This document shows positions 3,703 through 61,885 of a DNA stretch of 64,000 nt, one piece after another; positions within the stretch are counted from its first letter, which is position 1, and every line of letters begins with the position of its first letter. The position numbers and the translations under genes are program-made. Source of the stretch: Paenibacillus sp. FSL H8-0537. GTDB lineage: Bacteria > Bacillota > Bacilli > Paenibacillales > Paenibacillaceae. The stretch is from contig NZ_CP150290.1 of the NCBI RefSeq assembly GCF_038051995.1, forward strand, positions 4,020,001 through 4,084,000, given 5' to 3'. The notes under the pieces were generated by a model. The model saw only the letters and a list, made by a program, of their open reading frames with translations, did no database searches and was not told where the DNA came from.

Positions 3703-3790
3703 CAAGCGTAAACGGCTGTCGCCGTCCTCAGGCGGCAAAGCTGTCGTTTCGAGGGTGAAATATAGACCGCTTACATGTGTGAAACTTATA
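3703..3790 (+). repeat. Two-hairpin interspersed repeat, copy A (tail truncated)
   Basis: The head hairpin runs from CAAGCGTAAACGG (3703) through GCCGTCCTCAGGCGGC to GTCGTTTCGAGG. It is followed by GAAATATAG (3757) and a shortened tail ending GTGTGAAACTTATAA. The same GTGTGAAACTTATAA string is in copy F at 49807, but here the closing TATATTTC arm is lost. The inner stem pairs TGTCGCC with GGCGGCA. Confidence 0.8.
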
Positions 3791-3801
3791 ATCAGGCTGG
3801 C

Positions 3802-3848
3802 AAAATAAAAAATGCTTTCAGCAACTGTTATCAGTCGCTGAAAGCATT
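3802..3848 (-). terminator. Rho-independent terminator of the dynamin operon
   Basis: AATGCTTTCAGC (3811-3822) pairs perfectly with GCTGAAAGCATT (3837-3848) around a 14-base loop. On the minus strand the hairpin is followed by TTTTTTATTTTG, 22 bases after the stop of the dynamin gene. Confidence 0.92.
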
Positions 3849-3870
3849 CAGACTATTATTAGATGAAAGC

Positions 3871-6800
3871 TTATGCAATTGTTGCGCTATGAAGATGAAT
3901 CAATTGCTGATGCAGCTCGCGCAATTGACCCACATCGGCATTATCCGCTAGCGAGATGCGCTTGCCCTCTACATAGTTGACAACGTCCTGCTGCAGCTGC
4001 TCGCCTGACTGCTCGGCGTACTTTTTCCAAAGCGCGCTGTAGCGCTCGGTCCACTGCCTGTTCTCGGCAGCCATCCACTGCTGGAGTGATGGAATGAGCA
4101 GCGCTTCAAGCTCCTTGCGCAGCTGCCCTTTACCGTCGCCCTCGAAAAATTGCCGCGGCGATTTAAAGCGGCTCCACAGCCATTTGCCTGTAATATCCGT
4201 TGTCGTCCAATCGACGTCGATTTCCGGAGTAGGAATGGCCGCCGTCTCATAAGGGATGGATTGATAGCCCGTTAGCAGAGCGGCAAGCTCGGATGCACAG
4301 CTGTCAAATTGCTTGCGCAAAAGGCCATTCAAAATTCGCTCCAGACGCAGCGAGGTCGCTTGCAGCTCCTGAGCGAGCTCCATCTGAATTTGCCGCTGCA
4401 AATCAAGCCAAGCCGTCCAAATCATTTTCTTCAAATCGCGACCATCATCCTGCAAGACAGAAGGATTAAACGCGTAGTTGTAAAATTCACCGAATCTAAG
4501 CTGCTGGCGCTGCACGACGTAATAGAGCAGCTCGCTTAGCTCCTGTGCCTGCTGAGGCGGCGCCTCGCTGGAACGATAAGAAGCAAGCAGCAGCTGTGCC
4601 TGCTCTTGAAGCGCAGCCAGCCCTCTGAGCTCCTGCTCTCTCGTAGCCGCATCGCCTGTGGCACTGTTCAGCCAGCCATTTACGGTAGCTGCCGCCCTCA
4701 CAATTTCCTGCTCAGCTGCGTCAATCGCAAGCCGTCCTAAATCCTCGCTTACGAAATGCAGGAAGGAGCGCTCAAAAGCGTCAATGCCCGAGCGTTCCAG
4801 CAGCTCGCCATCGCCATTTTGCTTCGCGTCGAGACCGTCCAGACTTGAAACCGGATAGAGACGCGGCGAACGAATGCCATGCTGGAGCAGGTTATGCTCC
4901 ACATGCTTCAGGACGCCCGCAAGCTCCTCCTGGTCAGCTGCCAAATCGGCCGCGTTGACGAGGAAAAACATTTTATCAAGCTCGAACTGGTCCTTGACCC
5001 GTCCAAGCTGCATGAGAAACTGACGGTCTGCCTGTGAAAAAGCATGGTTGTAATAGGTGACGAACAGGACAGCGTCAGCATTTTTAATGTAATTGAACGC
5101 AACGCCCGTATGGCGGGCGTTCACGGAATCCGCTCCCGGCGTATCGACGAGAACGATGCCCTGCCGCGTCAGCTCGCAATCGTAATAAAGCTCGATTTCG
5201 CTGACGTAGCAGGAACGCGATTCCTCCGCTACGAAGCGCTCGTACTCCGCCTGTGAGACGGTGAGGCGCTGGCCAAGCAGCGCCTCATGCTCTTCCCAGC
5301 CTGCGCGTGCAGCACGCAGGAAGCTGTAGTGCGGCCGTCCGCCGGCGTGAATCGCATCTGGCGACAGGCGGTCGATCGCGCGCATGAGAGCGGCAGCGTC
5401 CGGCAGCGCAGCGTCAGAAGCGTCTTCGCCGAGCAAAGCGAGCGAATAGCGCAGGTCTTCCAGGACGGCGTCACGGGATTTCATGACGACGCCCGCCGTG
5501 CCATGCTCGCGGCCGCCCGATGGCGGCACGAGACGGTTGATCGCCGCCGTCGTCGGATTCGGCGACACCGGCAGTACCGGCTCGCCAATAAGCGCATTGG
5601 CGAGCGAGGATTTGCCCGCGCTGAACGCTCCGAACAGCGCGATTGTGAACCGGCTGCTGCGGAGCCGGTTCGCCTTGTCCTGCATCGCCTGCGCGGCCGC
5701 GGCTAGCGGCGCGTGCGGCGTCAGCAGCGCGGCTGCGCTGAGCAAGCGCGCGGCTGCGCCATGCTGCTGCGACAGCGCTTCGCCGCTGCCGAGCGCAGTT
5801 TGCGCTGGCGTCGCGGCAACGCCCGCGCCACTGGCCCTTGCGGCAGCAGCGTCGCCCGCTGCCGCCCCATCGCCGCGCTGCGCAGCTTCGCTCGCGCGGC
5901 CCAGCTCTTGCCCGGCGGCGGCATCTGCCGCGCCGCCGTCTACACCTGCGCGCGCGCGTGCATCTGCCGCTGCGCGCTTTGGCGCCGGCAGCGCCGGCCG
6001 CGCAACTGGCTGCGGCAGCGTCCCCGCAACCTGCGCCGCATGCTGCGCGGCGCGCTCCGCCAGCGCCGCAAGCAGCCCTAGCGCCCCGGCCTGCGCATCA
6101 AGCGCCGCAAGCCGTCCTCGCACATCTGCAGCGGCCGTCTCGCTCGCCGCTGCCACATGCGCCGTCAGCGCGTCAATCAGCTCATTGCCGCGCTTCCGGT
6201 AAAGCTCCTTCACCTCCGCGGCTAATTCGCGCGTATACGTCATCGTATATTCGTTGCCGAATACCGCTCCCGTATTTACGCGCTGAATGAGCCATGAAGT
6301 ATCCGGCTTCCAGCTAAACTGCTCGGCAAGCTGCTGCTCCAGCGTTTCCGCTGCGTAGCCGACTTTCTCAGCGGCGCGGCGCAGTAAATCCTTTACATGC
6401 CAATCAACTGCCGCATTCACTTGGCCAGCAAAATCATGACAGAACAGCTCCGCACGGCGTTCCTGCTCAGCCGCCGTCTTCGCTCCAGCGAACAACAGCC
6501 CCGTCTTGAAGCCCGGCTTCCTGCTTTCCAGAAACGCATGCGCTAAATCCCGCACTGGAGCTGGCGTAATGATTGCATTGTCTACCAGCGCCTGCAAATC
6601 CCGGCGCAGCTCCAGACGCAGACGTTCCGGTTCTGCTTCGAGCTGCTTCGTTTGCAGCATCAGCTCGCCCTGCTCCGTCTTCACCCGCTGCGCTTCCTCT
6701 TCTCCGCCTGCCTCGGCAAGCAGCCGTTCCTTCTCCGGTTCATCCTGCATCTCGCACCATTTCAAATGCTCCGCTGCAAGATGGCGCAGCGAAGCATCGA

Positions 6801-7605
6801 CGCTGTAAGCAGCAAGCGGCTCACGTAATTCCTTCAGCTCGTCAAGCAGCCGCGTAAGCGCCTCCCATTCCTGATGCGGATGATCCGGCTGGCGCAACGA
6901 CAAATAAACGATTCCCGCTGGCTCCAAATGCCAAGCTTGAAACGCCTCTTCTACGCTTTTGCGATACTCAGCAAACGTTAGCTCGCGTTCCCTGTGCTTA
7001 TCAATCTGATTCACAATAAAATATAACGGCTTGCCCCAATCCTTAAGCTGCTTGGCAAACGCAAAATTAATTTCCGATTGCACATGATTATAATCCATGA
7101 CATAAAACACGACATCCGCCAAATGCAGCGCTGATTCCGTTGCCATCCGGTGTGCATCATCCGTAGAGTCAATGCCCGGCGTATCCAGAAGTACCGTATG
7201 ATTGCCTAATCTTTCTGTTGGATACGTAATCGAGACCGATTGGAACTGCTCACCGTCTACGCAATAGCGATCCAGATCCTCCAAAGAAACACTGAGGCTA
7301 GACGCCTTGCCATCCTTCTCCGTGATGATGCTTGCCCGCGCCTCTGCTCCGCCTCTTATGGACACTACGTTCGCACTGGTCGGAATCGGACTCGAAGGCA
7401 GAAGCTGAGCCCCGCACAGCCGATTGATCAGCGTGGACTTGCCTGCGGAAAAATGACCGCAAAAAGCAACAGTAAGCCGACCCTCGGCCAGCTTACTGTG
7501 TACCTCCATAACTTGTTTGGCGTGCAGCGCATCACCTGCGTCCGTCATTTCGCGGGCCGCCAGGATTGTTGCTTCTTCAATGCGTTGTACCGTCATTTCA
7601 GCCAT
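3871..7605 (-). CDS. dynA: Double-headed bacterial dynamin (DynA/YpbR-like)
   Basis: A 1244-aa protein with two complete dynamin GTPase units in tandem, as in B. subtilis DynA, which tethers and fuses membranes and helps withstand membrane damage and phage. Unit 1 has P-loop GHFSAGKST near residue 53, G3 DTPGID and G4 NQID. Unit 2 has GAFSAGKSS near residue 660 and G3 DTPGAD; its G4 region reads FLVNAADL. Between them, at about residues 500-635 (DNA 5700-6100), lies a very Ala-rich, GC-rich stretch that replaces part of the first stalk. The start is three bases after the stop of the small upstream gene, which suggests coupling. A perfect terminator follows. Function is inferred from the family. 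Confidence 0.9.
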   Translation of the reverse strand: MAEMTVQRIEEATILAAREMTDAGDALHAKQVMEVHSKLAEGRLTVAFCGHFSAGKSTLINRLCGAQLLPSSPIPTSANVVSIRGGAEARASIITEKDGKASSLSVSLEDLDRYCVDGEQFQSVSITYPTERLGNHTVLLDTPGIDSTDDAHRMATESALHLADVVFYVMDYNHVQSEINFAFAKQLKDWGKPLYFIVNQIDKHRERELTFAEYRKSVEEAFQAWHLEPAGIVYLSLRQPDHPHQEWEALTRLLDELKELREPLAAYSVDASLRHLAAEHLKWCEMQDEPEKERLLAEAGGEEEAQRVKTEQGELMLQTKQLEAEPERLRLELRRDLQALVDNAIITPAPVRDLAHAFLESRKPGFKTGLLFAGAKTAAEQERRAELFCHDFAGQVNAAVDWHVKDLLRRAAEKVGYAAETLEQQLAEQFSWKPDTSWLIQRVNTGAVFGNEYTMTYTRELAAEVKELYRKRGNELIDALTAHVAAASETAAADVRGRLAALDAQAGALGLLAALAERAAQHAAQVAGTLPQPVARPALPAPKRAAADARARAGVDGGAADAAAGQELGRASEAAQRGDGAAAGDAAAARASGAGVAATPAQTALGSGEALSQQHGAAARLLSAAALLTPHAPLAAAAQAMQDKANRLRSSRFTIALFGAFSAGKSSLANALIGEPVLPVSPNPTTAAINRLVPPSGGREHGTAGVVMKSRDAVLEDLRYSLALLGEDASDAALPDAAALMRAIDRLSPDAIHAGGRPHYSFLRAARAGWEEHEALLGQRLTVSQAEYERFVAEESRSCYVSEIELYYDCELTRQGIVLVDTPGADSVNARHTGVAFNYIKNADAVLFVTYYNHAFSQADRQFLMQLGRVKDQFELDKMFFLVNAADLAADQEELAGVLKHVEHNLLQHGIRSPRLYPVSSLDGLDAKQNGDGELLERSGIDAFERSFLHFVSEDLGRLAIDAAEQEIVRAAATVNGWLNSATGDAATREQELRGLAALQEQAQLLLASYRSSEAPPQQAQELSELLYYVVQRQQLRFGEFYNYAFNPSVLQDDGRDLKKMIWTAWLDLQRQIQMELAQELQATSLRLERILNGLLRKQFDSCASELAALLTGYQSIPYETAAIPTPEIDVDWTTTDITGKWLWSRFKSPRQFFEGDGKGQLRKELEALLIPSLQQWMAAENRQWTERYSALWKKYAEQSGEQLQQDVVNYVEGKRISLADNADVGQLRELHQQLIHLHSATIA

Positions 7606-7608
7606 AAT

Positions 7609-7890
7609 CTATGCAATTTCCTCATCATCGGAAGGCATGCAAATTTCGAATACATTGCCATGCTGCAAAATCATAATGTTACGCTCTTTTTCGCGCATAA
7701 CAACGACTTCCGGTTTTTGACGCATACGCTCGATGTATTGGTCAGGCACGTCGCCGGAGCCGCTAACGGTTACGCCTTCCACTACGATATCTTCGTTTTC
7801 TTCTGGCGGGGAGCTAAGCACTTGCTCATAAATATCAGAGAAAAGCTCAAAACTATTTGTATACACGGAAATACACTTCACTGTCATCAT
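7609..7890 (-). CDS. Unknown small acidic protein (93 aa)
   Basis: I do not recognise this protein. It is acidic (several D/E clusters, C-terminus PSDDEEIA), has no signal peptide or membrane segment, and carries a central VVEGVTVSGSGDVPDQYIER region and a Lys/Arg patch before MILQHGNVFEI. It sits 34 bases after nth and three bases before the dynamin gene, so it is probably co-translated with the dynamin. GAAGGATG lies at the first ATG; the ATGATG tandem leaves a choice between 7890 and 7887. The close fit suggests a link to the dynamin, but that is a guess from position only. Confidence 0.75.
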   Translation of the reverse strand: MMTVKCISVYTNSFELFSDIYEQVLSSPPEENEDIVVEGVTVSGSGDVPDQYIERMRQKPEVVVMREKERNIMILQHGNVFEICMPSDDEEIA

Positions 7891-7924
7891 CCTTCATTTT
7901 AAAAGTATTGGTTATTAGCCAACC

Positions 7925-8605
7925 TTATTTAGCCACTCTCTTAACAGTCTTCTTGTTTAAGCCTGGCTTCATACGTTGTTTTCCTTCATTGCACATATCC
8001 AGCAGCGGACAAACCTCGCATTGCGGATTTTGCGCCTTGCAATGATAGCGGCCGAAAAAAATGAGCCGATGATGGGTAAGGGTCCATTCGTCTTTGGGAA
8101 CAAGCTTCATGAGCTTCTTCTCAACTTCCAGCACAGAATCATCAGACTTCGCTACCCTAAGGCGCTTGGATACACGTTCAACATGGGTATCGACTGCAAT
8201 AGCCGGCACATTAAACGCATTAGACATGACGACATTCGCCGTCTTGCGTCCAACACCCGGCAGCTCAACCAGCTGCTCATGCGTGGAAGGAGTTTCTCCA
8301 TCATATTTATCAATGAGAATGCGGCACAATTTTTGAATATTGGAAGCTTTGCTTCGGAATAAACCGATTCTTCGAATATCCTGCTCCAGCTCTTCCAGCG
8401 GAACCGCCACATAGTCCTCCGGCTGCTTATACTTTTGAAATAGGTTCGCGGTTACCTTATTCACCATCTCATCAGTACATTGCGCAGACATCAAGACAGC
8501 AATCGTCAGCTCAAACGGATTAGAATGGTTCAGCTCGCAATGTGCGTCCGGAAACATCTCCGCAAGAGTATCCAATATGTGTCGCATCTTCTGCTTCGCA
8601 TTCAT
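7925..8605 (-). CDS. nth: Endonuclease III (DNA glycosylase/AP lyase)
   Basis: Nth removes oxidised pyrimidines from DNA and nicks the resulting abasic site in base excision repair. The 226-aa product shows the helix-hairpin-helix LPGVGRKTANVV with the catalytic Lys, the catalytic Asp in VDTHVERVSKRL, and a C-terminal iron-sulfur cluster site with spacing C-X6-C-X2-C-X5-C (CKAQNPQC then CPLLDMC). The start is placed at MNAKQKM (8605) because GGGAGAGAGG lies just upstream; an ATG at 8629 would add eight unlikely residues. A good promoter is seen at 8640-8668. It heads an apparent operon with the 93-aa gene and the dynamin. In B. subtilis nth follows dnaD; here dnaD is 28 kb away. Confidence 0.97.
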   Translation of the reverse strand: MNAKQKMRHILDTLAEMFPDAHCELNHSNPFELTIAVLMSAQCTDEMVNKVTANLFQKYKQPEDYVAVPLEELEQDIRRIGLFRSKASNIQKLCRILIDKYDGETPSTHEQLVELPGVGRKTANVVMSNAFNVPAIAVDTHVERVSKRLRVAKSDDSVLEVEKKLMKLVPKDEWTLTHHRLIFFGRYHCKAQNPQCEVCPLLDMCNEGKQRMKPGLNKKTVKRVAK

Positions 8606-8639
8606 CGTCCTCTCTCCCATTCCAAACACTATCGTTCAA

Positions 8640-8668
8640 AGTGTAGCGAAAATCGTCTCTCCATGCAA
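8640..8668 (-). promoter_or_regulatory. SigA-type promoter of nth-dynA
   Basis: On the minus strand TTGCAT (complement of 8663-8668) and TACACT (complement of 8640-8645) are separated by 17 bases, about 35 bases before the nth start. Confidence 0.75.
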
Positions 8669-8697
8669 CTATAATCCACCATAAATATTGAAAAAAT

Positions 8698-8726
8698 CAT
8701 AAAAAAACTGCCCCGTAGGGCAGTTT
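8698..8726 (-). terminator. Rho-independent terminator of the SLH protein gene
   Basis: AAACTGCCC (8705-8713) pairs with GGGCAGTTT (8718-8726) around a four-base loop. On the minus strand a T-run follows, 20 bases after the stop of the SLH gene. Confidence 0.93.
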
Positions 8727-8745
8727 GTCACATAACCTTACCAAT

Positions 8746-11220: not shown

Positions 11221-11253
11221 AATTATCGTTCCCCCCGAATAGTTTCAAAACGT

Positions 11254-11352
11254 CAAGCGTAAACGGCTGTCGCCGTCCTTTGGTGGCAAAGCTGCCGTTT
11301 CGCGTAGAAATATAGAGAAGGAATCGAAAAATCATATTCTTTCCTATATTTC
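11254..11352 (+). repeat. Two-hairpin interspersed repeat, copy B (complete)
   Basis: This is the best type 1 copy. The head starts CAAGCGTAAACGGC and closes with GCCGTTTCGCG; AAACGGC pairs with GCCGTTT, and the inner arms TGTCGCC/GGTGGCA pair with G-U help. The second hairpin pairs GAAATATAGAGAAGG with the closing CTTTCCTATATTTC arm. Copy C starts at its last base, so the two form a tandem pair. Confidence 0.88.
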
Positions 11353-11392
11353 AAGCGTAAACGGCTGTCGCCGTCCTTTGGTGGCAAAGCTA
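11352..11392 (+). repeat. Two-hairpin interspersed repeat, copy C (head only)
   Basis: This repeats the first 40 bases of copy B exactly (CAAGCGTAAACGG to GGTGGCAAAGCT) and stops there. Its right edge overlaps the TAG stop codon of the minus-strand lipoprotein gene at 11390-11392, so the truncation point coincides with the end of a gene. Confidence 0.85.
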
Positions 11393-11950
11393 AGGCTTGA
11401 CTGTTGGATGCTCAAGCTCAACATGGCCCATCAGCGTATCAGCGCTGTCTCCATCTACGAGCAAATCATAGGCTTTTACAAAGTCGAACTGGAACAATGT
11501 TTTTTGGAGCGTCTCCAGCACTAATACTTCGCCAGGCGAACCAAGCCGGGATTCGTCAGACAAATGAAGATCAATCGTCACCTGTCCATCGCTTCCCAGC
11601 AGCACCGATTTAACTTCGATCAGCTTCCACAGTGATACAGCGCCTTCGCCCTCCACATGCTGCAGTGCTGTTATTGCGTTTTGAACTAATTCCAGATCTG
11701 AGCTGTATGCAACCTGAACCTGCTGCTCCACTAAACCATCCAGCTCTTCATTTCCCGCATATACCTTTATTTCTAGTGTCTGTTTTTCAGGCTCAATTGA
11801 CGGCTCAGCGGATGGCGAAGCCGATGGCTGAATAGAAGGCGACGGGCTGCTGCCTGCGCCTGATTCAGCCGGCTTGTTTACCGCGCCGCAGCCCGCAACG
11901 AGTCCAACTATACATAAAGTCAACATGAACTGGCTTATTGTTCGCAGCAT
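11390..11950 (-). CDS. Lipoprotein with a GerMN domain
   Basis: A 186-aa lipoprotein: signal sequence with lipobox LVAGC (Cys about residue 21), a Ser/Pro/Glu-rich linker (about 25-57), then a GerMN domain covering the rest, as in the germination protein GerM and LpqB-like proteins. GerM contributes to spore cortex synthesis and germination, but GerMN domains also occur in general envelope proteins, so the role is open. It lies 17 bases downstream of the amidase gene and is likely co-transcribed with it, which supports wall-related work. The last codon and stop overlap repeat copy C, so the original C-terminus may have been changed by the repeat. Confidence 0.85.
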   Translation of the reverse strand: MLRTISQFMLTLCIVGLVAGCGAVNKPAESGAGSSPSPSIQPSASPSAEPSIEPEKQTLEIKVYAGNEELDGLVEQQVQVAYSSDLELVQNAITALQHVEGEGAVSLWKLIEVKSVLLGSDGQVTIDLHLSDESRLGSPGEVLVLETLQKTLFQFDFVKAYDLLVDGDSADTLMGHVELEHPTVKP

Positions 11951-11967
11951 CTGTTATCCCCCTCTCT

Positions 11968-13560: not shown

Positions 13561-13658
13561 AAAATATAGGAAAGTATATGGTTTTTCCATCCTTCTCTAT
13601 ACGTTTCGCCAAAACGATGGCGTCTAATAGAAAGGACGGCGATAGCCGTTTCACCTTG
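13560..13658 (-). repeat. Two-hairpin interspersed repeat, copy D (head partly replaced)
   Basis: Read on the minus strand it starts CAAGGTGAAACGGCTATCGC and then GTCCTTT. The 3' half of the head is replaced by unrelated bases. After GGCGAAACG comes TATAGAGAAGGATGG and the closing CCATATACTTTCCTATATTTT arm split by a short loop. It lies between leuD and its terminator, in inverse orientation to copy E beyond leuC. Confidence 0.8.
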
Positions 13659-13666
13659 TTTACAGC

Positions 13667-15851: not shown

Positions 15852-15952
15852 CAAGGTGAAACGGCTATCGCCGTCCTTTGGCGGCGCGGCGCGTTTCAGT
15901 CCGAGAAATATAAGCGTATTTATACGAGAACACTTATAAATTCTTATATTTA
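15852..15952 (+). repeat. Two-hairpin interspersed repeat, copy E (complete, type 2)
   Basis: The head runs CAAGGTGAAACGGC to GCGCGTTTCAG with inner stem GCCG/CGGC. The tail pairs AAATATAAG with CTTATATTT around TATTTAT/ATAAAT. It ends 14 bases before the ribosome binding site of lysR, so it would lie in the lysR leader if transcription starts upstream. Confidence 0.87.
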
Positions 15953-16924: not shown

Positions 16925-16925
16925 T

Positions 16926-47924: not shown

Positions 47925-48807
47925 TGCCATTCACCTCCCAAGGTTCAAACAACTCATTATCAATTAAGCGGGTTGACCCAAATTTTACGGCTAAAGCCAA
48001 AATATAACTCTGCTGGCCCCGGTGAAACGGTACCTCCGCAACAGGAGTAGCAAGCGCTGGATATTCCAGCACTTCGACATAATCGATATTTGCAAGCGGT
48101 GCTTCACTGATCGCAGCACGCACTTTGTTCTCGAGCGCTGCTGGCGTTAGCGAAGCCTCCTTCATCCATTCCCGCGCCTTTGCAAGCGACGAAGAAAGGA
48201 CGACAGCCTGCGCCCGCTGCTCCGCATTCAAATACACATTGCGCGAGCTGAGCGCCAGACCATCCGGCTCCCTTACAATCGGGCAGGGCACGATCGTTAC
48301 CGGAAAATTCAAGTCATCGGTCATTTGCGCAATGACCGCAACCTGCTGAGCATCCTTCATGCCAAAGTATGCCCGGTGTGGCTGCACCAGATGAAACAGC
48401 TTGCTGACGACCGTCCCAACGCCGTCAAAATGGCCTGGGCGCGATGCACCGCATAAGCGGTCTGTCACATCGCTGACAAGCACCTTCGTCAGCACCTTGC
48501 GCGGGTACATTTCGCTGACGGATGGCATAAACACTAGATCAACGCCATTTTCAGCAGCAATGGATAGATCGCGCTGCTCATTGCGCGGATACGTTTCAAA
48601 ATCCTCGCTTGGCCCAAATTGCAGCGGATTGACGAAAATCGAAAGTACGGTGATATCATTTTCCGCTGCTGCCTGCCGCATTAAACTGGCATGTCCTTCA
48701 TGCAAATACCCCATCGTTGGCACAAAACCGATACTTGGCTTACTGCCGCCGCTCCACATCTTCTTTTGCTGCGCTTTTAGCTCATCTATGGTTCGGCACA
48801 AAATCAC
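47917..48807 (-). CDS. panC: Pantothenate synthetase
   Basis: Joins pantoate and beta-alanine with ATP. The 296-aa product has [40 protein letters not shown] and ALSSRNVYL. The start is most likely GTG at 48807 ([10 protein letters not shown]), about ten bases after GAGAGGGGG; the longer frame lies inside panB. It overlaps panB by 26 bases and panD by eight. Confidence 0.96.
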
Positions 48808-49726
48808 GCTGCTCAGCCCCCTCTCCAGCCTGCTCGCTATCACCCGCACCTTTGACACCATTCACATGCTCGCGGGTCGCTGAACCGCCATAGAGGCTGT
48901 CTACAGCGTCCTCAGACCTTTTACCGAACACATGCTCCTCCGCTGGAAACTCACCGGATTTGACTTCACTTACGAAAGCTCCGATGGCATCGCGAATCGT
49001 TGAACCGATGTCTGCGTACACTTTCACCATTTTTTTCTTAATAACGGGTGATGAATATTGCAAAATATCATGATACACAAGCACCTGTCCATCACATCCG
49101 CGGCCTGCTCCAATGCCAATCGTTGGAATCGACAGCTCGCGGCTGATACGGTCCGCAATTGTCTCCGTTACAAGCTCCAGTACGATGGCGTAAGCGCCAG
49201 CCTGTTCAAGCGCCTTGGCATCTCGAAGTATTTGCTCAGCTTCCGCCTCCTGCTTTCCTTGTACCTTGAAGCCGCCATGCGTATGAATCGATTGCGGTTT
49301 AAGCCCGATATGGCCCATCACCGGAATGCCCGCTTTAACCAGCGCTGCCACTTCGCTCGCAATTTCTTCCCCGCCTTCAAGCTTAAGCGACTGGCCGCCG
49401 CCCTCCTGCATCATTCTGGCTGCATTGCGCAGCGTAGCTTCACGCCCGATGCCGTACGTCATAAAGGGCATATCCGTCACAATGAACGTATGGCGAGCCC
49501 CGCGTGCTACCGCTTTCGTATGATAAATCATATCGTCTAAAGTGACCGGAAGCGTCGTATCGTAACCGAGCACCACATTGCCAAGCGAATCCCCTACAAG
49601 AATAATATCGACGCCTGCCTCCTCCGAAAGCATAGCCGACGGATAATCGTAAGCGGTCATGACGGTGAGCTTGTTGTTTTCCTCTTTCATTTGCTGCAAG
49701 TTCGTTATCGTTAAACGTTTCCTCAT
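48782..49726 (-). CDS. panB: 3-methyl-2-oxobutanoate hydroxymethyltransferase
   Basis: First step of pantoate synthesis. The 314-aa product has the PEP-mutase-type TIM barrel with LTVMTAYDYPSAML, ILVGDSLGNVVLGYD, MGHIGLKPQS and PTIGIGAG. About 40 residues after EEHVFGK are a polar, family-unlike tail; the end of this tail is encoded in the overlap with panC, so it may reflect a lost stop codon. The operon panB-panC-panD is complete. Confidence 0.96.
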   Translation of the reverse strand: MRKRLTITNLQQMKEENNKLTVMTAYDYPSAMLSEEAGVDIILVGDSLGNVVLGYDTTLPVTLDDMIYHTKAVARGARHTFIVTDMPFMTYGIGREATLRNAARMMQEGGGQSLKLEGGEEIASEVAALVKAGIPVMGHIGLKPQSIHTHGGFKVQGKQEAEAEQILRDAKALEQAGAYAIVLELVTETIADRISRELSIPTIGIGAGRGCDGQVLVYHDILQYSSPVIKKKMVKVYADIGSTIRDAIGAFVSEVKSGEFPAEEHVFGKRSEDAVDSLYGGSATREHVNGVKGAGDSEQAGEGAEQRDFVPNHR

Positions 49727-49767: not shown

Positions 49768-49799
49768 CAAAAAAACCTTTTAGCCGTCGCTAAAAAGGT
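49768..49799 (-). terminator. Rho-independent terminator of the mazG-like to birA operon
   Basis: ACCTTTTAGC pairs with GCTAAAAAGGT around four bases; TTTTTTT follows on the minus strand. It separates the operon ending in birA from panBCD. Confidence 0.9.
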
Positions 49800-49806
49800 C
49801 CCAAAA

Positions 49807-49909
49807 CATGGTGAAACGGCTGCCCTCCGTCCTTTGGCGGCACGGCGCGTTTCAGCCCGAGAAATATAAGCCTATTTATAGGTGTGAAACTTATAAATGC
49901 TTATATTTC
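49807..49909 (+). repeat. Two-hairpin interspersed repeat, copy F (complete, type 2)
   Basis: The head runs GGTGAAACGGC to GCGCGTTTCAG with CCGTCCTTTGGCGG inside. The tail is the best second hairpin of the family: GAAATATAAGC and the closing GCTTATATTTC pair perfectly, and ATTTATA/TATAAAT extend the stem with a two-base bulge. Confidence 0.88.
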
Positions 49910-50103
49910 GAAAAAGGAAACGTATATCACTTTACTGCTTCCTTCTGTCTCGGTCCTTTCGGCTCAGAGCAGACTACCTTTACTGCAATCAAATCCTTCT
50001 TGCAAATCCATACCAATGCTGGCATGAGGTTTAGCACAGTGCAGCTCTTTTCAGATACCGCCTGTTAACCCCATACTAGCAAAAATATGTCGATTCGTAA
50101 ATA

Positions 50104-52357: not shown

Positions 52358-52376
52358 TTTCTCACCCTCTGTCCTC

Positions 52377-54746: not shown

Positions 54747-54786
54747 AGGTGAGGCCCCTCTTCCGCTGTCTAGTTCAATCCTTCTA

Positions 54787-55587: not shown

Positions 55588-55594
55588 TTATCCA

Positions 55595-56140: not shown

Positions 56141-56196
56141 TACCGCCCATCCTCCTTGTACACAGGTTGATGGTACAGCATATGTGAGAGGCGGCA

Positions 56197-56532
56197 TTAC
56201 TGTTCAGCGTTTTTTAAAGTCCAGCGGTTTTTATCCCGTGTATTAAATTTGTCCATGACTTTGTTGTGTGCTTCCGTTAAATCAATATCGAGCGAATTGG
56301 CAAAACAGGATAAAAGAAATAAAATATCGCCAAGCTCCATTTCAATGGAGTTGTCGGCTTCATCCGCCTTTTTGCGTTTCTCGCCGTAGGAATGGTTCAC
56401 TTCACGCGCAAGCTCGCCGACTTCCTCGCTCATTCTTGCCATCAGTGCCAGTGGACTGAAATAGCCTTCTTTAAATTGAGAAATATAATCATCCACTTCT
56501 TGCTGGATATCTGCCAACGATTTTTGAGCCAT
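56197..56532 (-). CDS. MazG-like nucleotide pyrophosphohydrolase (YpjD-like)
   Basis: A 111-aa all-helical house-cleaning NTP pyrophosphatase. The metal-binding pattern is SEEVGELAREV and ELGDILFLLSCFANSLDID. It equals B. subtilis YpjD in length and place. It starts an operon running to birA. A TTGACA lies upstream (minus strand near 56605) but without a good -10. Confidence 0.9.
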   Translation of the reverse strand: MAQKSLADIQQEVDDYISQFKEGYFSPLALMARMSEEVGELAREVNHSYGEKRKKADEADNSIEMELGDILFLLSCFANSLDIDLTEAHNKVMDKFNTRDKNRWTLKNAEQ

Positions 56533-56832
56533 AGGTGAAATTCCCTTCTTTCAAGACTACCGTTTCCCACATCTATTGCAGTTGGAAAACAAGCCTAAAA
56601 CTAATTGTTGTCAATAATTCATATGTTAACGCAAAGAGACGATGAAAACAATGTTTTTGAACGATGAAAATTGCGCTATACTACAGAATGGAAACCGCCA
56701 TCTGATCATCATCGGCGTTTTTCGGCTGTCGCCTCTAGAAGATTTATCGCAAGCAGTGGACAGGGAAGCGAATAAGTGAAATAATGGATTTTTTATACTT
56801 ATATGCTTATATTTTAAAAAAGGAGAATTCTA
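56533..56832. other. 300-base divergent gap with a degraded repeat
   Basis: No gene. TATACT preceded by TGCGC (about 56681) may serve the yitT-family gene. A degraded copy of the two-hairpin repeat may lie at about 56717-56817: it keeps CGGCTGTCGCC and the tail TATGCTTATATTTTAAAA, but the middle is unlike the others. Confidence 0.45.
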
Positions 56833-57702
56833 ATGATGTTTCGTAAAGTAACCAAGCAATTACAAATTATTCTGCCTATTCTGCTAGGCACAGCCATATA
56901 TGCTTTTGGGCTGCACTATTTTCTTATACCGAATATGCTTATGGAGGGCGGTGTAACCGGTATAGCGGTTCTGCTAAATTATGCAGCCGGATGGCCGCTG
57001 TCCATTACGACGCTTGTCCTCAACATTCCGTTGTTTCTGCTTGGCTGGAGGACGCTTGGCCGTACCGAAATGCTTTATACGCTCGCTGGCATCGTTTCGC
57101 TTTCCTTCTTCCTAGCCGTAATGGAGCAGCTTATTGCCAAAGGCTGGGTCGTAACGTTCCACACTTCAACCGATTACATACTTGCTGCTTTGTATGCGGG
57201 AGTTACGCTCGGCGCAGGGCTTGGCATCGTCTTTCGTTTTGGCGGAACGACTGGAGGCGTGGATATTATAGCCCGAATCGTATCACGTCGCAAAACGCTG
57301 AGCATGGGGCAGATTATTCTCATTCTCGATATTGTCATTATCGGGGGCTCGCTCTTTTTTATTCCTATCGAAAAAGTGCTGTATACGCTCGTAACGGTAT
57401 TTGTTGCCGCCAAGCTCATTGATTTCATTCAGGATGGCGCTTATGCCGCCAAATCCTTCTCGATTATTACAGACAAAGGGACTCCGATGGCGCAGCGCAT
57501 TACGATTGAAATGGAACGCGGTGTGACGCTGATGCCGGCAAAAGGCGCCTTTTCCGGTCAGCAAAAGGAAATCGTATATTGCGTCGTTCAGCGGCAGGAG
57601 CTGCGCCGCCTCAAAGCAATCGTTCGCAGCGTTGATCCTCGTGCATTCGTCATCATTAATGATGTCCACGATGTGCTGGGCGAAGGATTCAACGAGGAAT
57701 AA
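56833..57702 (+). CDS. YitT-family membrane protein (YpjC-like)
   Basis: A 289-aa membrane protein: five to six helices in the first 200 residues (IILPILLGTAIYAFGLHYF and following), then a cytoplasmic DUF2179 domain (FSIITDKGTPMAQRIT, SGQQKEIVYCVVQRQE). Related to the YitT/YpjC set of B. subtilis; function unknown, possibly transport. AAAAGGAG lies before the ATG. In B. subtilis ypjC lies in the same cluster; here it faces the other way from its neighbours. Confidence 0.9.
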   Translation: MMFRKVTKQLQIILPILLGTAIYAFGLHYFLIPNMLMEGGVTGIAVLLNYAAGWPLSITTLVLNIPLFLLGWRTLGRTEMLYTLAGIVSLSFFLAVMEQLIAKGWVVTFHTSTDYILAALYAGVTLGAGLGIVFRFGGTTGGVDIIARIVSRRKTLSMGQIILILDIVIIGGSLFFIPIEKVLYTLVTVFVAAKLIDFIQDGAYAAKSFSIITDKGTPMAQRITIEMERGVTLMPAKGAFSGQQKEIVYCVVQRQELRRLKAIVRSVDPRAFVIINDVHDVLGEGFNEE

Positions 57703-57704
57703 AA

Positions 57705-57741
57705 GCATAAAGCCGCTCCCATCAAGGGAGCGGCTTTATGC
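57705..57741. terminator. Bidirectional terminator between yitT-family gene and ypjB
   Basis: GCATAAAGCCGCTCCC pairs perfectly over 16 bases with GGGAGCGGCTTTATGC around five bases. It begins just after the yitT stop and includes the last six codons of ypjB on the other strand, so it serves both converging genes. T-runs are short. Confidence 0.8.
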
Positions 57742-58603
57742 CGTAAGGCTGCTGCTTGTATTTACGCCAGCTTTTATAGGCAAGCACAGCCATAATAATA
57801 GCACCGAGCAGCAGCGTCCAGCTTACCGGATTAGCCGATGCAGGTGGCGCAAGCGCAGGCTCTTCAACAACAGATTGCGGCTTGTCCGTAAACAATCTGC
57901 TTACGGCTGCTCCAAGCTGCGTCAGCGCCTCGTCGACTCGACTCGCTTGCGCTTGGTCTTGAGGTCCAGCGGATAACAGCACATTCGTATAGCGTATCCG
58001 CTCATGCAGCTCTGCTGTCCGTCCTTCCGGACGCAGCATAAAGGCAGGACCTTCAACAAGCGCCAAATGCGCGCTTAAGTTGTCTATCGCCGCCCTCGCA
58101 GCAGCAGCCCGCTCTTCATATGGGCGCTTCCATGCTTTTCTCACACGGCTTACATCCTCGAGCATAACCCGCTCATATTGCATCCATAACCCACTGGCTG
58201 GCCTAAGCATCGCATCCGCAGTTAGATGAATGCGGGCAGAGGTAGCCAGCCACCCGGCGGGCTGCCTTTTGCTCAGAAGCTCCTCCGAGACAGCCTGTAT
58301 GCTTTGCTGCAGCATAATCCACCCAGCTGGGCGGCCTTCAATGCCAGTCTCCAGCTGCGGCAGCAGTCGCTCCAACTGCTGGACATATTTATAACCAGCT
58401 TGGCGGTTGTCTGCGTAAGAAGCCTTATATAATGAATTAGCCGCTTCCTCGAAACGACGCATGAGCACTTCAGCATCGACAGCCTCCGCTTGCCTTGCGC
58501 CAAGCGGTTGTTCGCCTGCATAAGCCCAAGTCGCAGAAACAGAGCCAAGCAGCATTGCGATACTTAATAGAATGGGCATTGCAATACGCGTTCTCATGGA
58601 CAT
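57722..58603 (-). CDS. ypjB: Sporulation protein YpjB-like
   Basis: A 293-aa membrane protein with a signal peptide (about 1-29), a long helical outer domain and one C-terminal membrane helix (WTLLLGAIIMAVLAYKSW, about 264-281). It matches the YpjB family of spore-formers in order, size and layout; in B. subtilis ypjB is linked to sporulation. GGGGGG precedes the ATG. That site and the start codons lie inside a perfect hairpin (58596-58637), suggesting control of translation. Confidence 0.85.
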   Translation of the reverse strand: MSMRTRIAMPILLSIAMLLGSVSATWAYAGEQPLGARQAEAVDAEVLMRRFEEAANSLYKASYADNRQAGYKYVQQLERLLPQLETGIEGRPAGWIMLQQSIQAVSEELLSKRQPAGWLATSARIHLTADAMLRPASGLWMQYERVMLEDVSRVRKAWKRPYEERAAAARAAIDNLSAHLALVEGPAFMLRPEGRTAELHERIRYTNVLLSAGPQDQAQASRVDEALTQLGAAVSRLFTDKPQSVVEEPALAPPASANPVSWTLLLGAIIMAVLAYKSWRKYKQQPYGIKPLP

Positions 58604-58637
58604 CCCCCCATAATTAAGCTTATGAGGGGATGTCCAT
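58596..58637 (-). promoter_or_regulatory. Hairpin burying the ypjB ribosome binding site and start
   Basis: In the minus-strand RNA, ATGGACATCCCC pairs perfectly with GGGGATGTCCAT. The 3' arm holds the G-run ribosome site and both possible ypjB start codons. An inner CATAA/TTATG stem extends it. The 5' arm also spells a tiny frame M-D-I-P-S-stop without a ribosome site. Confidence 0.75.
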
Positions 58638-58649
58638 CGTTATGCTTTT

Positions 58650-59285
58650 TTATGCTTGTTTTCTCGCTCGGAGCGCCAGCCAGCCCACGACAAAGCTAAA
58701 GATGGATAAGCCATATGTATACAGGCGAACTTGCGGCAAATCGTCCATCAGCTCATCAGCCAGCCACGGGAATACGCCGAACGAATAATCAATGGTGTCA
58801 TTAAGCAGCAGCCAAGCTGTGGCAACAACGACAGCCTTGAATCCCGCTTTCATAAAACGAGCATACAGAAGCACCTCTACAGCCATGCCAAGATGAGAAA
58901 AAACGAGCATGCCGTGCTGCCAATTCAGTTCCCCGCCCTGCGCTCCCGTCGCCACGATCATGGACACCGCCCACAAGCCATATTTCACCGACGTGACAAC
59001 TGCAAGTCCTTCGATAATCATTCTAGTCACCTGAACGAATCTAGATGCCGATTCTGGCGGCGGGAACAGCAAGTAAAGCAGCGTAAGGGTAAAAAACAAA
59101 CTAGCTGTCGGACTGTCCGGCACAAATACAAGCAGCCAAGACGGAAAACGTTCATAAGTATAAACCAATTGATTCCAGTACCATATGTAACCGTAAACGG
59201 TCCCTAAAAAATTAACGATAAACAGCAGCCACAAGATCGTACGATTCATCCACAGCATGCGGCTCCATAACCATGACAATCCCAT
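58650..59285 (-). CDS. ypjA: DUF1405 membrane protein (YpjA-like)
   Basis: A 211-aa protein with about six membrane helices (TILWLLFIVNFLGTVYGYIW, LFFTLTLLYLLF, AVVVATAWLLLND). It fits the DUF1405/YpjA family in length and place, between qcrC and ypjB. Function unknown. Confidence 0.87.
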   Translation of the reverse strand: MGLSWLWSRMLWMNRTILWLLFIVNFLGTVYGYIWYWNQLVYTYERFPSWLLVFVPDSPTASLFFTLTLLYLLFPPPESASRFVQVTRMIIEGLAVVTSVKYGLWAVSMIVATGAQGGELNWQHGMLVFSHLGMAVEVLLYARFMKAGFKAVVVATAWLLLNDTIDYSFGVFPWLADELMDDLPQVRLYTYGLSIFSFVVGWLALRARKQA

Positions 59286-59353
59286 TGTTTTCAGCCCCTA
59301 TATTCCCAGCCTTGTTGTACCAAGCGAGCATTGCCTTGCCTAATAAGTTTGAA

Positions 59354-59387
59354 AAGAACCTGATTGCAATGAAGCAATCAGGTTCTT
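59354..59387 (-). terminator. Rho-independent terminator of qcrABC
   Basis: AAGAACCTGATTGC pairs perfectly with GCAATCAGGTTCTT around six bases; TTTTC follows on the minus strand. It lies 12 bases after the qcrC stop. Confidence 0.9.
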
Positions 59388-59399
59388 GCTGTTACTTAT

Positions 59400-60281
59400 T
59401 TATTCAGTTGCAGCTTTCTGCTTGGAAAGCCACGTTGCAATTTGATCAATCTGCTCAGCGCTCAGGCTGTCTTTGAAGGCAGGCATATTGCCATTACCGT
59501 TCGTGACGGTAGCAACAATTTCTTCCTTGGACAAGACATCTCCAATACCACGAAGTGCAGGAATTTGCGGTGGGTTACCCTTCATGTCTGCTGCATGACA
59601 GGTCAGACATTTGGATTGCTCCATCAGCTTATGAGCTGGATCATCCGCTTCTACAATTGCAACAGCCGCGGTTTCAGGCTTCTTCGTCGTGCTAGGAGCC
59701 TCTTCACCTTTAGCCGCCGCTTCTCTGGCTTTCTCTTCACGAACGTGATGCTCAGGAATTGTATTGGTAATTTCCAGCTGGTGCTGGTAGTGATCCCAAG
59801 ATACAACCGTCAAATACACTGTCGCGATCAATGATAAAATCATGAGCGAGGAAGCAATTGGACGACGATAAAATCTGCGCTCTTTGCCTGTATCCAGGAA
59901 AGGAGCAAGCAGCAAGCCGCCGAACATAACGCCAGGTATGCCCATCGTACCGAGCACGATATAATCCTGTGAAACATATGGATATTTCAAAAATTGATAC
60001 AAAAACAAGAAATACCAGTCCGGCATCGGAATAAACGCTGCGTTTGTCGGATCTGCCGGATAGCCAAGCGGAGCTGGCTCTGCAATCGTCCATACGAGAA
60101 AACCGACGAGTACGACGCAGCCAACCATCCACTCTTTCAGCAGGAAGTTAGGAATAAACGCCTCTGACTTCCCTGGAAAAGACGTATAGTCGGGCGGAAT
60201 ATTCGGATGATTGTTTTTCTTCACCCGTGAATCTCCGACGAATACAACCTTTTCGTCTGATTTGTGACCATGTGCCATCAT
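59400..60281 (-). CDS. qcrC: Menaquinol:cytochrome c oxidoreductase cytochrome b/c subunit
   Basis: A 293-aa fusion of a subunit-IV-like membrane part (three helices, with WYFLFLYQFLKYP) and a C-terminal outer cytochrome c domain. Haem c binds at CLTCH (about residue 222) with a likely Met in GNMPAFKDSLS. Third subunit of the Gram-positive bc complex, feeding cytochrome c oxidase. The linker (about 195-215, EEKAREAAAKGEEAPSTT) is flexible. Confidence 0.96.
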   Translation of the reverse strand: MMAHGHKSDEKVVFVGDSRVKKNNHPNIPPDYTSFPGKSEAFIPNFLLKEWMVGCVVLVGFLVWTIAEPAPLGYPADPTNAAFIPMPDWYFLFLYQFLKYPYVSQDYIVLGTMGIPGVMFGGLLLAPFLDTGKERRFYRRPIASSLMILSLIATVYLTVVSWDHYQHQLEITNTIPEHHVREEKAREAAAKGEEAPSTTKKPETAAVAIVEADDPAHKLMEQSKCLTCHAADMKGNPPQIPALRGIGDVLSKEEIVATVTNGNGNMPAFKDSLSAEQIDQIATWLSKQKAATE

Positions 60282-60297
60282 AAAGTCCTCCCTTCGC

Positions 60298-60969
60298 TTA
60301 AAGTGGTCCCGAAATACCTTGTTTCCGAATCATCAGGAAGTGAGCCGCTAGCATAGCAAGCAATGCGCCAGGCAGGAAGAATACGTGAATCGCGAAGAAG
60401 CGAGTCAGCGTTTGCGCACCTACGATGTCGCCGCCATACAGGAACTTCCCGATGTAAGGTCCGATGTACGGAACGGATTCCGCGATTTGAACGCCGACCT
60501 TAGTTGCGAAGTAAGCTTTGTTATCCCATGGAAGAAGGTAGCCCGTGAAACCAAGGCCCAACATAATGAAGAAAATAAGCATACCTACTACCCAGTTCAT
60601 TTCGCGCGGCGCTTTATAAGAGCCGGTGAAGAATACGCGCAGCGTATGTAAAAACATCATAACAATAACAAGACTCGCACCAAAGTGATGCATACCGCGA
60701 ACGATGCCGCCGAATGCGACCTTATGGTTCAAATAGTCAACGCTTGCATAAGCATTCAGAATATCCGGAACATAATACATCGTCAGGAACATGCCGGACA
60801 AAATTTGAATGACGGTAATAAAAAACGTCAAGCCGCCAAAGCAATAGACGAACGCCGAGAAGTGATGCGCAGGGTTAACGTGCTCAGGAACCTCATGGTC
60901 CGCAACGTCCCTCCACAACGGCGTAATGTCAAGACGTTCATCGATCCAATTGTATACACTTTTAAACAT
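60298..60969 (-). CDS. qcrB: Menaquinol:cytochrome c oxidoreductase cytochrome b subunit
   Basis: A 223-aa cytochrome b6-type protein with four membrane helices. Haem ligands are His pairs in MHHFGASLVIVMMFLHTLRV and in RFFAIHVFFLPGALLAMLAAHF; the quinol-site PW/GYLLPWDNKA loop is visible. It lies 16 bases after qcrA. Confidence 0.97.
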   Translation of the reverse strand: MFKSVYNWIDERLDITPLWRDVADHEVPEHVNPAHHFSAFVYCFGGLTFFITVIQILSGMFLTMYYVPDILNAYASVDYLNHKVAFGGIVRGMHHFGASLVIVMMFLHTLRVFFTGSYKAPREMNWVVGMLIFFIMLGLGFTGYLLPWDNKAYFATKVGVQIAESVPYIGPYIGKFLYGGDIVGAQTLTRFFAIHVFFLPGALLAMLAAHFLMIRKQGISGPL

Positions 60970-60985
60970 CTGATCATTCGCCTCC

Positions 60986-61519
60986 TTAGCCTACCCGTGA
61001 ATTTGGCTTAACTGGACCCAAGTAAACAAATCCATTCTCAATCTTCACTTCGTATTCATCCAATGGATTTGGTGCTACGGTAATGTTCTTGCCGTCTTTC
61101 GTATAACGCGCGTCGTGACACGGGCAGTCATACTCATCTTTACCCTTCGCATTCCAGGCAATCGTGCAACCCAGATGTTTGCAGATTGGTGAAAGCGCAA
61201 ATACTTTGTTATTTGCGTCTTTGGACACCCAAGCAGACAGCTCAGGATCGCTGACGTACCATCCATCAACTTGGTGAATTTGGAACTTAAACTCTTGCGG
61301 ATCTGTTGTAATTTTGCTCTCTTCTACTACTTTAACAAAGGTGCCTTCGGTTTTTTTCTCTAATAATGGGTCTACCGCAAAACGCACCATTGGAAGCACG
61401 GCTCCGCCCATCATAAAAGCGGTTGTTCCACCGAGCGTATACGACAAAAACTGCCGTCTTGACATCTCTTTGCGTTGAAGCGGCTTGTGTGCCGATTCTT
61501 GATGTTCGTGGTTACTCAT
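60986..61519 (-). CDS. qcrA: Menaquinol:cytochrome c oxidoreductase Rieske iron-sulfur subunit
   Basis: A 177-aa Rieske protein. RRQFLSYTLGG with twin arginines followed by one membrane helix suggests Tat insertion. The 2Fe-2S ligands are in CKHLGCTIAW and CPCHDARY. The start is MSNHEHQESA (61519) after AGGGGGT; the frame from 61576 is longer but lacks support. A textbook promoter lies at 61598-61626. Confidence 0.97.
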   Translation of the reverse strand: MSNHEHQESAHKPLQRKEMSRRQFLSYTLGGTTAFMMGGAVLPMVRFAVDPLLEKKTEGTFVKVVEESKITTDPQEFKFQIHQVDGWYVSDPELSAWVSKDANNKVFALSPICKHLGCTIAWNAKGKDEYDCPCHDARYTKDGKNITVAPNPLDEYEVKIENGFVYLGPVKPNSRVG

Positions 61520-61597
61520 CTTCTGTTCTACCCCCTTTGCCAACCATTTCTTGTGTTTTAGCGCATAGCAAAACACATGACGAACTAGGACATACTT

Positions 61598-61626
61598 ATA
61601 ATAGCCTAGGTGCTTAGGAGCGTCAA
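61598..61626 (-). promoter_or_regulatory. SigA promoter of qcrABC
   Basis: TTGACG (complement of 61621-61626) and TATTAT (complement of 61598-61603) are 17 bases apart. Confidence 0.85.
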
Positions 61627-61744
61627 GAATATGGCTGATGATTGACTGCCTAATAAAATGTTGATTTTTAATTTGTAATTAATTTGTCACATTTAACCTT
61701 GCATGGCATTTGTTTTCCCCATAAAATCGTTTAATTATGCAAAT

Positions 61745-61842
61745 CAAGCGTAAACGACTTTTCCGTCCTCTAGCAGCAAAGCTTTCGTTTCGAGGGTGGA
61801 ATGTAGAGAATGGATAACGAAATCATATCCCTTCCTATATTT
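61745..61842 (+). repeat. Two-hairpin interspersed repeat, copy G (type 1, diverged)
   Basis: The head runs CAAGCGTAAACGACTT to TTTCGTTTCGAGG with several changes against copy B. The tail begins GGAATGTAGAGAATGG and closes CCCTTCCTATATTTC. Copy H follows at once. Confidence 0.82.
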
Positions 61843-61885
61843 CAAGGTGAAACGGCCGAAAGCCGTCCTTGGCGGCGCAGGGTGT
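61843..61885 (+). repeat. Two-hairpin interspersed repeat, copy H (head only, type 2)
   Basis: CAAGGTGAAACGGCC to GGCGGCGCAGGG, then it breaks off. Its right edge is next to the TGA of the DUF2487 gene (61887-61889), the same arrangement as copy C at the lipoprotein gene. Confidence 0.82.

What the first reader, a model, noticed from the sequence alone, without database searches (positions are those of the whole stretch)
3703..61885. A family of two-hairpin interspersed repeats with eight clear copies
Seen: eight copies (3703, 11254, 11352, 13560 minus, 15852, 49807, 61745, 61843) plus two possible remnants (25918, about 56717). Each full copy is about 100 bases. A GC-rich head starts CAAGCGTAAACGGC or CAAGGTGAAACGGC, has GCCGTCCTTTGG in the loop and a closing GTTTC. 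An AT-rich second hairpin follows, with arms GAAATATA...TATATTTC. There are two subtypes: one with TATAGAGAAGG in the tail and one with TATAAGC. All clear copies lie between genes. Arms differ between copies but still pair (for example GCTTATATTTC in F and the changed arm in B), which suggests that the structure is kept. No transposase is nearby. Inference: a REP- or MITE-like non-autonomous element, or a structured RNA element, possibly undescribed.
Basis: seen in the sequence. Interest (0 to 1): 0.75.

Follow-up and report, generated by a model that had tools for sequence, protein, structure and literature searches.

The report
Terminator-seeking two-hairpin mobile DNA repeat
A 98-base, two-hairpin DNA repeat without genes of its own has spread to well over a hundred places in this bacterium's chromosome, landing next to T-runs at gene ends and mostly facing one way relative to DNA copying, although the three kinds of moving enzyme searched for are missing from several repeat-rich relatives.

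Summary
The repeats are real, at the stated coordinates, and part of a large mobile family. The unit is 98-99 nt: an AT-rich hairpin, then a GC-rich hairpin, ending CTTG when read on what is usually the lagging-strand template. In the 1.9 Mb of this genome that I read there are 188 full units at 175 loci. Units also occur in 53 of 98 relatives but, across the phylum sample, in only 3 of 397 other genomes, all in the same family. G013, a close relative, lacks the unit at 8 of 22 comparable loci, 6 of them clean pre-insertion sites, including D (15852) and E (49807) of the window. T-runs are already present there, and no consistent target duplication is seen. 98 of 146 flanks end in a T-run, often a terminator. 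134 of 175 loci oppose the fork; G010 repeats this (115 of 135). Part of the bias follows terminators; part persists where they cannot explain it. Arrays grow head-to-tail. It works like an IS200/IS605-type or REP single-strand element, or like group IIC intron targeting, but membership fails: Y1, Y2 and reverse-transcriptase genes are absent from G013 and other copy-rich genomes. The mobiliser is unknown.

The parts
3703..3794 (+). Copy A: unit with complete head, tail cut short (model 1-85); also present in G013
   Evidence: profile hit E 7e-15; G013 alignment
11254..11352 (+). Copy B1: full unit, head type 1, tail type 1
   Evidence: profile hit E 9e-30; fold z -7; in G013 this unit's place holds other sequence (by eye)
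11352..11393 (+). Copy B2: head-only second unit of a dimer, joined at TATATTTC|AAG; reaches the stop codon of the GerMN-domain ORF (11390-11950, minus)
   Evidence: profile hit E 1e-10; 98-nt spacing; head kept in G013
13561..13658 (-). Copy C: full-length but decayed unit, the only window copy oriented with the fork; present in G013
   Evidence: profile hit E 2e-19; G013 alignment
15852..15952 (+). Copy D: full unit, head type 2, tail type 2, between a leuC-like aconitase-family gene (minus) and a LysR-type gene (plus)
   Evidence: profile hit E 6e-20; neighbours; empty in G013; no profile hit in 80 other LeuC loci, many from distant taxa
49807..49909 (+). Copy E: full unit in the leader of panB, between the pan motif and a terminator-like hairpin
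   Evidence: profile hit E 1e-16; clean empty site in G013
49776..49797 (-). terminator-like hairpin and T-tail between copy E and panB
   Evidence: pattern scan, 1 found, 0.4 expected from shuffles
49941..50064 (-). pan motif RNA (RF01749), upstream part of the leader that copy E interrupts
   Evidence: 37.4 bits against gathering 36.2
61745..61843 (+). Copy F1: full unit, head type 1
   Evidence: profile hit E 3e-19; G013 lacks the dimer but its flanking sequence is altered
61843..61893 (+). Copy F2: head-only second unit of the dimer
   Evidence: profile hit E 3e-5

Best explanation
A family of 98-99-nt non-autonomous mobile elements that move through, or insert into, single-stranded DNA at the replication fork. 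On the strand that is usually the lagging-strand template, the unit reads 5'-[N]AAATATAGG..CTATATTTC (AT hairpin) - GC-rich hairpin with conserved AGGACGGCGACAGCCGTTT - NNNCTTG-3'. Shown: unit, hairpins, insertion next to pre-existing T-runs (often terminators) without consistent target duplication, orientation biased against the fork, sites that differ from a close relative, and head-to-tail arrays joined at CTT(G)|AAATATA. Inferred: a trans-acting enzyme recognises the folded ends (the sequence-conserved GC hairpin and CTTG end, the pairing-conserved AT hairpin), cuts next to TT, and joins the unit as a single strand, so that a resident CTTG end also serves as a target. The enzyme is not identified. 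Function for the host: probably none (selfish); insertion beside terminators keeps the cost low.
For: Copy number: 217 non-overlapping hits, 188 full, 175 loci in 1.90 Mb read around the 150 best hits. Target: 98 of 146 full loci have at least 6 T in the last 8 bases before the unit, against 2.3% of random intergenic positions; 57% of those 98 have a hairpin of -10 kcal/mol or better just upstream, against 24% of 600 control T-runs and 7% of 400 random sites. T-runs are present in G013 at all six clean sites that lack the unit. Orientation: 134 of 175 against the fork; 9 of 11 between co-directional lagging-strand genes, 24 of 31 convergent, 23 of 35 divergent, together 56 of 77 (p 8e-5); second genome G010, 115 of 135 loci of a capped list. 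Junction specificity: four of four full family-B units found by seed begin directly after the CACCTTG end of a family-A unit. Arrays: 42 same-strand, 0 opposite-strand neighbours within 150 nt. Copy number differs at the same locus in G013. Pairing kept by double changes across species. The lagging-template mechanism of IS608/ISDra2 is described in PMC6006769 (passages read, including part of the abstract).
Against: No mobilising enzyme found: Y1_Tnp in 16 of 98 relatives and not tracking copy number; this genome's own IS605-like element has different ends, by eye; G013 has none. Y2_Tnp in 3 and RVT_1 in 12 of 22 chosen genomes (own included); both absent from G013, G022, G026 and G047. Part of the orientation bias comes from terminators: control terminator-like T-runs already lie 102 of 142 on the lagging template, against 47 of 56 for elements (p 0.10). 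The lagging-gene and divergent classes are not significant alone against 1:1 (p 0.07 and 0.09). Family B shows no clear fork bias: 9 of 17 near-full hits by my reading (7 of 10 in the stretches read). The right-end base is G in 86% of loci, while two sites suggest that base can come from the target, so the exact cut is unresolved by 1 nt. Except at D, loss in G013 is not excluded.
Confidence: 0.6

Rival explanations
1. RNA-templated spread: a unit RNA is copied by a group IIC-type intron reverse transcriptase at terminator T-runs, as a SINE uses a LINE.
For: Bacterial-C group II introns insert immediately after intrinsic terminators and lie strongly on the lagging strand (PMC8919778, passages read), the same two signatures as here. 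In head-to-tail reading the unit is often followed by an A-run, as expected for T-run priming.
Against: RVT_1 is absent from G013, G021, G022, G026 and G047, which have 25 or more matches each; own genome has one weak match. 208 of 239 raw hits reach from the first to the last fifth of the profile, with 11 cut on the head side and 20 on the tail side, so no excess of the truncation expected of such copying.
Confidence: 0.12
2. Remnants of an IS200/IS605-type or REP system (HUH Y1 transposase) whose enzyme has been lost; copies are now dying or moved by rare IS605 transposases in trans.
For: Two hairpins, no consistent target duplication and lagging-template orientation fit the family described in PMC6006769 (passages). 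CGTC-type REPs are likewise reported to lack a dedicated transposase (PMC3733652, passages).
Against: Differences from G013 (8 of 22 loci without the unit, several array lengths changed) speak for fairly recent activity, yet G013 has no Y1_Tnp match. In the 31 Y1 loci that were cut out, no unit sits at the ends of a Y1 gene; the only units are in the overlapping loci L032 and L033, about 0.5 kb beyond the element end.
Confidence: 0.2
3. Structured RNA or 3'-UTR element selected for a role in termination or mRNA stability, spread by recombination rather than transposition.
For: Located after terminators; AT hairpin conserved by compensatory changes.
Against: Also found between divergent genes (35 of 172); no Rfam match over the unit at the curated score; orientation against the fork also between lagging-strand genes (9 of 11); clean sites without the unit in a close relative, with no similarity between the two flanks beyond about 3 nt.
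Confidence: 0.06
4. DDE-type MITE.
For: Short, multicopy, non-coding.
Against: Ends CAAG.. and ..TATATTTC are not terminal inverted repeats; no consistent target duplication.
Confidence: 0.02

Closest known systems
IS200/IS605-derived non-autonomous elements (PATE-like; that name is recalled)
   Same: Two hairpins, no consistent target duplication, short target on the 5' side, lagging-template orientation
   Different: No Y1 transposase with matching ends found; target is a T-run or terminator and not a fixed tetranucleotide; 98-nt head-to-tail arrays
REP/REPIN/BIME with RAYT (TnpA-REP)
   Same: Intergenic, high copy, palindromic repeats
   Different: Unit 98 nt with two unlike hairpins, neighbours in direct orientation only; no RAYT-type gene in copy-rich genomes tested
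CGTC-tagged REPs (PMC3733652, passages read)
   Same: High copy, reported to lack a dedicated transposase; a CGTC motif occurs here too
   Different: CGTC is in the hairpin loop here, not at one end; dimers there are mostly head-to-head; the phyla listed for CGTC repeats do not include Bacillota
Bacterial-C (IIC) group II introns
   Same: Insert right after intrinsic terminators and on the lagging strand (PMC8919778, passages read)
   Different: 98 nt and no reverse transcriptase; several copy-rich genomes without RVT_1
52-nt tandem repeats of Bacillus (PMC8161180; abstract, one section, passages and tables read)
   Same: Constant unit length with variable sequence, tandem, strain-variable; said to be abundant in Paenibacillus
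   Different: 52 nt against 98-99 nt; the Table 1 repeats do not resemble these by eye

Membership tests
IS200/IS605-derived element | Y1 (HUH) transposase in genomes where it moves | tested here: not met
   PF01797 in 16 of 98 relatives; none in G010, G013, G016, G022, G026
IS200/IS605-derived element | Autonomous copy with the same ends | tested here: inconclusive
   own IS605-like ends differ by eye; no unit at the ends of Y1 genes in 31 loci cut out; no isolated tail near an isolated head except copy C in the 1.9 Mb read; the rest of the genome was not read for split ends
IS200/IS605-derived element | No target duplication, insertion beside a short target | tested here: met
   sites D, E, 2820271, 500012; a 3-nt TTC on both sides at 500012 can be read either way
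IS200/IS605-derived element | Lagging-template orientation | tested here: met
   134 of 175 and 115 of 135, partly owed to terminators
REP/REPIN | GTAG-type guide at the hairpin foot | tested here: not met
   type 1 heads carry GTAG next to the AT hairpin in sense reading, type 2 heads do not
REP/REPIN | RAYT gene flanked by the repeats | tested here: not met
CGTC REP | unpaired CGTC at one end | tested here: not met
   CGTC lies in the loop of the head in the consensus
DDE MITE | terminal inverted repeats and target duplication | tested here: not met
IS91/Helitron (Y2) | Y2 transposase | tested here: not met
   PF04986 in 3 of 22, none in own or G013
Group IIC intron passenger | reverse transcriptase in copy-rich genomes | tested here: not met
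   RVT_1 in 12 of 22; none in G013, G021, G022, G026, G047
Known Rfam structured RNA | covariance-model match over the unit at the curated score | tested here: not met
   window; five loci at E up to 5 gave over units only a miRNA model at 29 of 86 bits
Single-strand circular intermediate | excised ssDNA circle | not testable with these tools
   needs a bench assay

The most novel reading that the evidence does not exclude
A replication-coupled single-strand DNA mobile system of Paenibacillus and its relatives whose mobilising enzyme belongs to none of the known kinds tested (Y1 HUH, Y2 HUH, reverse transcriptase), with intrinsic terminators and other T-runs on the lagging-strand template as landing sites and resident units as secondary targets.
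Probability: 0.35. Interest if true: 0.85.

Novelty: new variant of a known kind. Interest (0 to 1): 0.62.

Why it matters
It is an abundant mobile repeat, differing between close relatives, with a clear target and strand signature but no visible enzyme. That makes the open question of how REP-like repeats spread without a dedicated transposase directly testable in a cultivable genus. It also yields sites with and without the unit for comparison, and a natural insertion inside a riboswitch-type leader (panB).

Tried and rejected
Rejected: DDE MITE (no inverted ends, no consistent duplication); REP/RAYT and IS200/IS605 membership; Y2 and reverse-transcriptase drivers; phage carriage (no match); plasmid carriage (two large Paenibacillus cellulosilyticus records only). 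Autonomous split copies: in the 1.9 Mb read, 32 isolated heads and 3 isolated tails were listed, and no isolated tail lies near an isolated head except copy C's own (by inspection; ORFs between ends were not tested). An RNAalifold consensus over mixed head types did not show the head stem; a scripted version stopped on it; named structures were counted instead. The first gene calls by longest ORF were replaced by hexamer-scored calls. Head covariation across species (A3) was aligned but not counted.

Counts left out or dropped: in the G013 block comparison 2 of 13 loci lacked one or both flanks and were not assessed; 4 of the 13 filled loci (2818504, 2940213, 3165838, 2137812) are judged by gap length only; 576133 is ambiguous; 506189 and F have altered flanks. 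Three loci at stretch edges were dropped, where four loci overlapping a called gene by more than 50 nt were kept in the context counts; 1 of 147 loci was dropped. The 1.9 Mb was chosen around the 150 best hits, so it is not a random sample, and the control T-runs come from the same stretches. Of the 80 LeuC loci roughly half are from other groups. For A2 and A3 I gave 37 of the 48 fetched relative loci plus four window copies (A2 after removing identical tails, A3 without L081). Most family-B hits lie outside the stretches that I read.
Full report
OBSERVATION. The window is G000:C1:4020001-4084000 of a single-contig genome of 7,005,912 bases. The genus is inferred: the nearest named LeuC loci are Paenibacillus.

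UNIT. I read 94 stretches around the best hits, 1,895,190 bases with the window after merging. A profile at E below 1e-3 gave 217 non-overlapping hits, 188 full-length, at 175 loci: 144 single, 23 double, 5 triple and 3 quadruple. Units in arrays start about 98 nt apart. Neighbouring units within 150 nt are in the same orientation in 42 of 42 cases. Two head types (CAAGCGTAAACGG.. and CAAGGTGAAACGG..) and two tail types occur in all four combinations (105, 53, 8 and 2 of 168 by the rule; a rougher rule gave 116, 42, 8 and 18 of 184). A second family, B, has the same length and layout with other sequence (AATTCTAAG..CTTAGAATTC, ending GTCGTTTTTGCTTG); all four full B units found by seed start directly after the CACCTTG end of an A unit. 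The genome holds 17 near-full B hits (my count of rows covering 90 or more bases, 40 of 97 candidates scored); some are A tails with B heads.

STRUCTURE. Across species the AT hairpin keeps pairing by change on both sides in 8 of 17 pairs (27 cells, 0 of 500 shuffles; all slid versions lower); that alignment holds 39 distinct tails. Tails fold better than shuffles in 37 of 39 and heads in 34 of 40 (z below -2). Within this genome type 2 heads show no covariation beyond shuffles, type 1 heads only reach the shuffle maximum, and type 1 tails show a modest excess. The GC-rich hairpin is conserved in sequence across species, above all CCAAAGGACGGCGACAGCCGTTT..CTTG, as expected if one protein reads it; that last step is inference.

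TARGET. Read on the reverse strand, the unit is preceded by a T-run and followed by unconserved sequence. At least 6 T in the last 8 bases: 98 of 146, against 2.3% of random intergenic positions; upstream hairpin of -10 kcal/mol or better: 57% of those 98, against 24% of control T-runs and 7% of random sites. So terminators are favoured, but plain T-runs also serve.

SITES WITHOUT THE UNIT. G013 is a close relative (mostly 89-97% identical in matched pieces). Of 22 loci with both flanks matched, 8 carry no unit in G013 (D, E and F of the window; 2820271, 500012, 477936, 590754 and 506189; F and 506189 with altered flanks), 13 carry one or a remnant (four judged by gap length only; at B only the second, head-only unit is kept), and 1 is ambiguous. 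At the six clean sites the T-run is there without the unit. At 477936 and 590754 an A+B pair is missing together. Array lengths differ: 3 here against about 1 or a remnant there, and 1 here against 2, about 3 and 4 there. No consistent duplication is seen: E goes TTTTTC^G, 2820271 goes inside TTTTA, 500012 shows a 3-nt TTC on both sides. D is also without a unit in 80 other LeuC loci, including the nearest by LeuC identity (P. gorillae, P. sp. SY21-1, P. castaneae), so D is most simply a gain in this lineage. For the other sites loss in G013 is not excluded.

ORIENTATION. GC skew, printed for every fourth stretch, is positive to about 3.27 Mb and negative from 3.75 Mb on; I put the switch at 3.45 Mb. 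134 of 175 loci oppose the fork. With hexamer-scored genes: leading pairs 75 of 95, lagging pairs 9 of 11, convergent 24 of 31, divergent 23 of 35; the last three together 56 of 77, p 8e-5; lagging and divergent alone are not significant against 1:1 (p 0.07, 0.09). If orientation followed gene direction as it does in leading pairs, 9 of 11 the other way in lagging pairs would be very unlikely (p 3e-5). Against this, terminator-like control T-runs are themselves 102 of 142 on the lagging template, and elements after terminator-like sites (47 of 56) do not differ significantly from them (p 0.10); elements elsewhere do differ from control T-runs (60 of 90 against 304 of 600; p 0.005). Family B gives no clear bias (9 of 17; 7 of 10). 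I conclude that terminators explain part of the bias and replication most probably the rest.

MOBILISER. Y1_Tnp: one intact and one broken IS605-like copy here, 16 of 98 relatives, none in G013; no unit at the ends of Y1 genes in the 31 loci cut out. RVT_1: 12 of 22 chosen genomes; Y2_Tnp: 3 of 22; neither in G013, G022, G026 or G047. No phage match, two large Paenibacillus replicons among plasmids. The enzyme is therefore unknown; loss, action in trans from an unrelated gene, or a host function all remain open.

RANGE. 53 of 98 relatives, in 7 of 32 genera (own genus counted), including a few in other families of the order; across the phylum sample 3 of 397 other genomes, all in the same family. 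Both searches used strict filters.

PRIOR WORK. Ten searches (of these 73, 79 and 90 were for comparators) showed no description of this repeat in the listings. The library holds only open-licence papers, so this is weak evidence of absence. Read in passages: PMC3733652, PMC6006769, PMC8919778, PMC6749651 and PMC8625621; PMC8161180 in abstract, one section, passages and tables.

Noticed in passing
49776-50064 (minus-strand leader of panB, 48782-49726): A pan motif RNA lies upstream of panB and a terminator-like hairpin follows; copy E sits between the two, and G013 lacks the insertion, so a natural element insertion splits a possible riboswitch leader.
   Followed up: partly
G000:C1 e.g. 2028649-2028747, 2640243-2640341, 2753181-2753279: Family B: a second 99-nt two-hairpin unit with unrelated AT arms that sits directly behind family A units; its near-full copies show no clear fork bias.
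   Followed up: partly
11352-11393: The truncated head of copy B2 reaches into the stop codon of the GerMN-domain ORF (11390-11950, minus), so element sequence forms that gene's end.
   Followed up: no
L032 (G000:C1 near 6070391): IS605-like element with a tnpA match interrupted by stops, about 0.5 kb from a decayed A/B-like unit whose AT hairpin carries other arms.
   Followed up: no
G010: Seven equal-scoring Y2_Tnp matches and ten RVT_1 matches in one genome, unlike most of the element-rich relatives tested.
   Followed up: no
L030:1382-1494 minus: epsC RNA (RF01735, 96.6 bits) directly beside a four-unit array.
   Followed up: no
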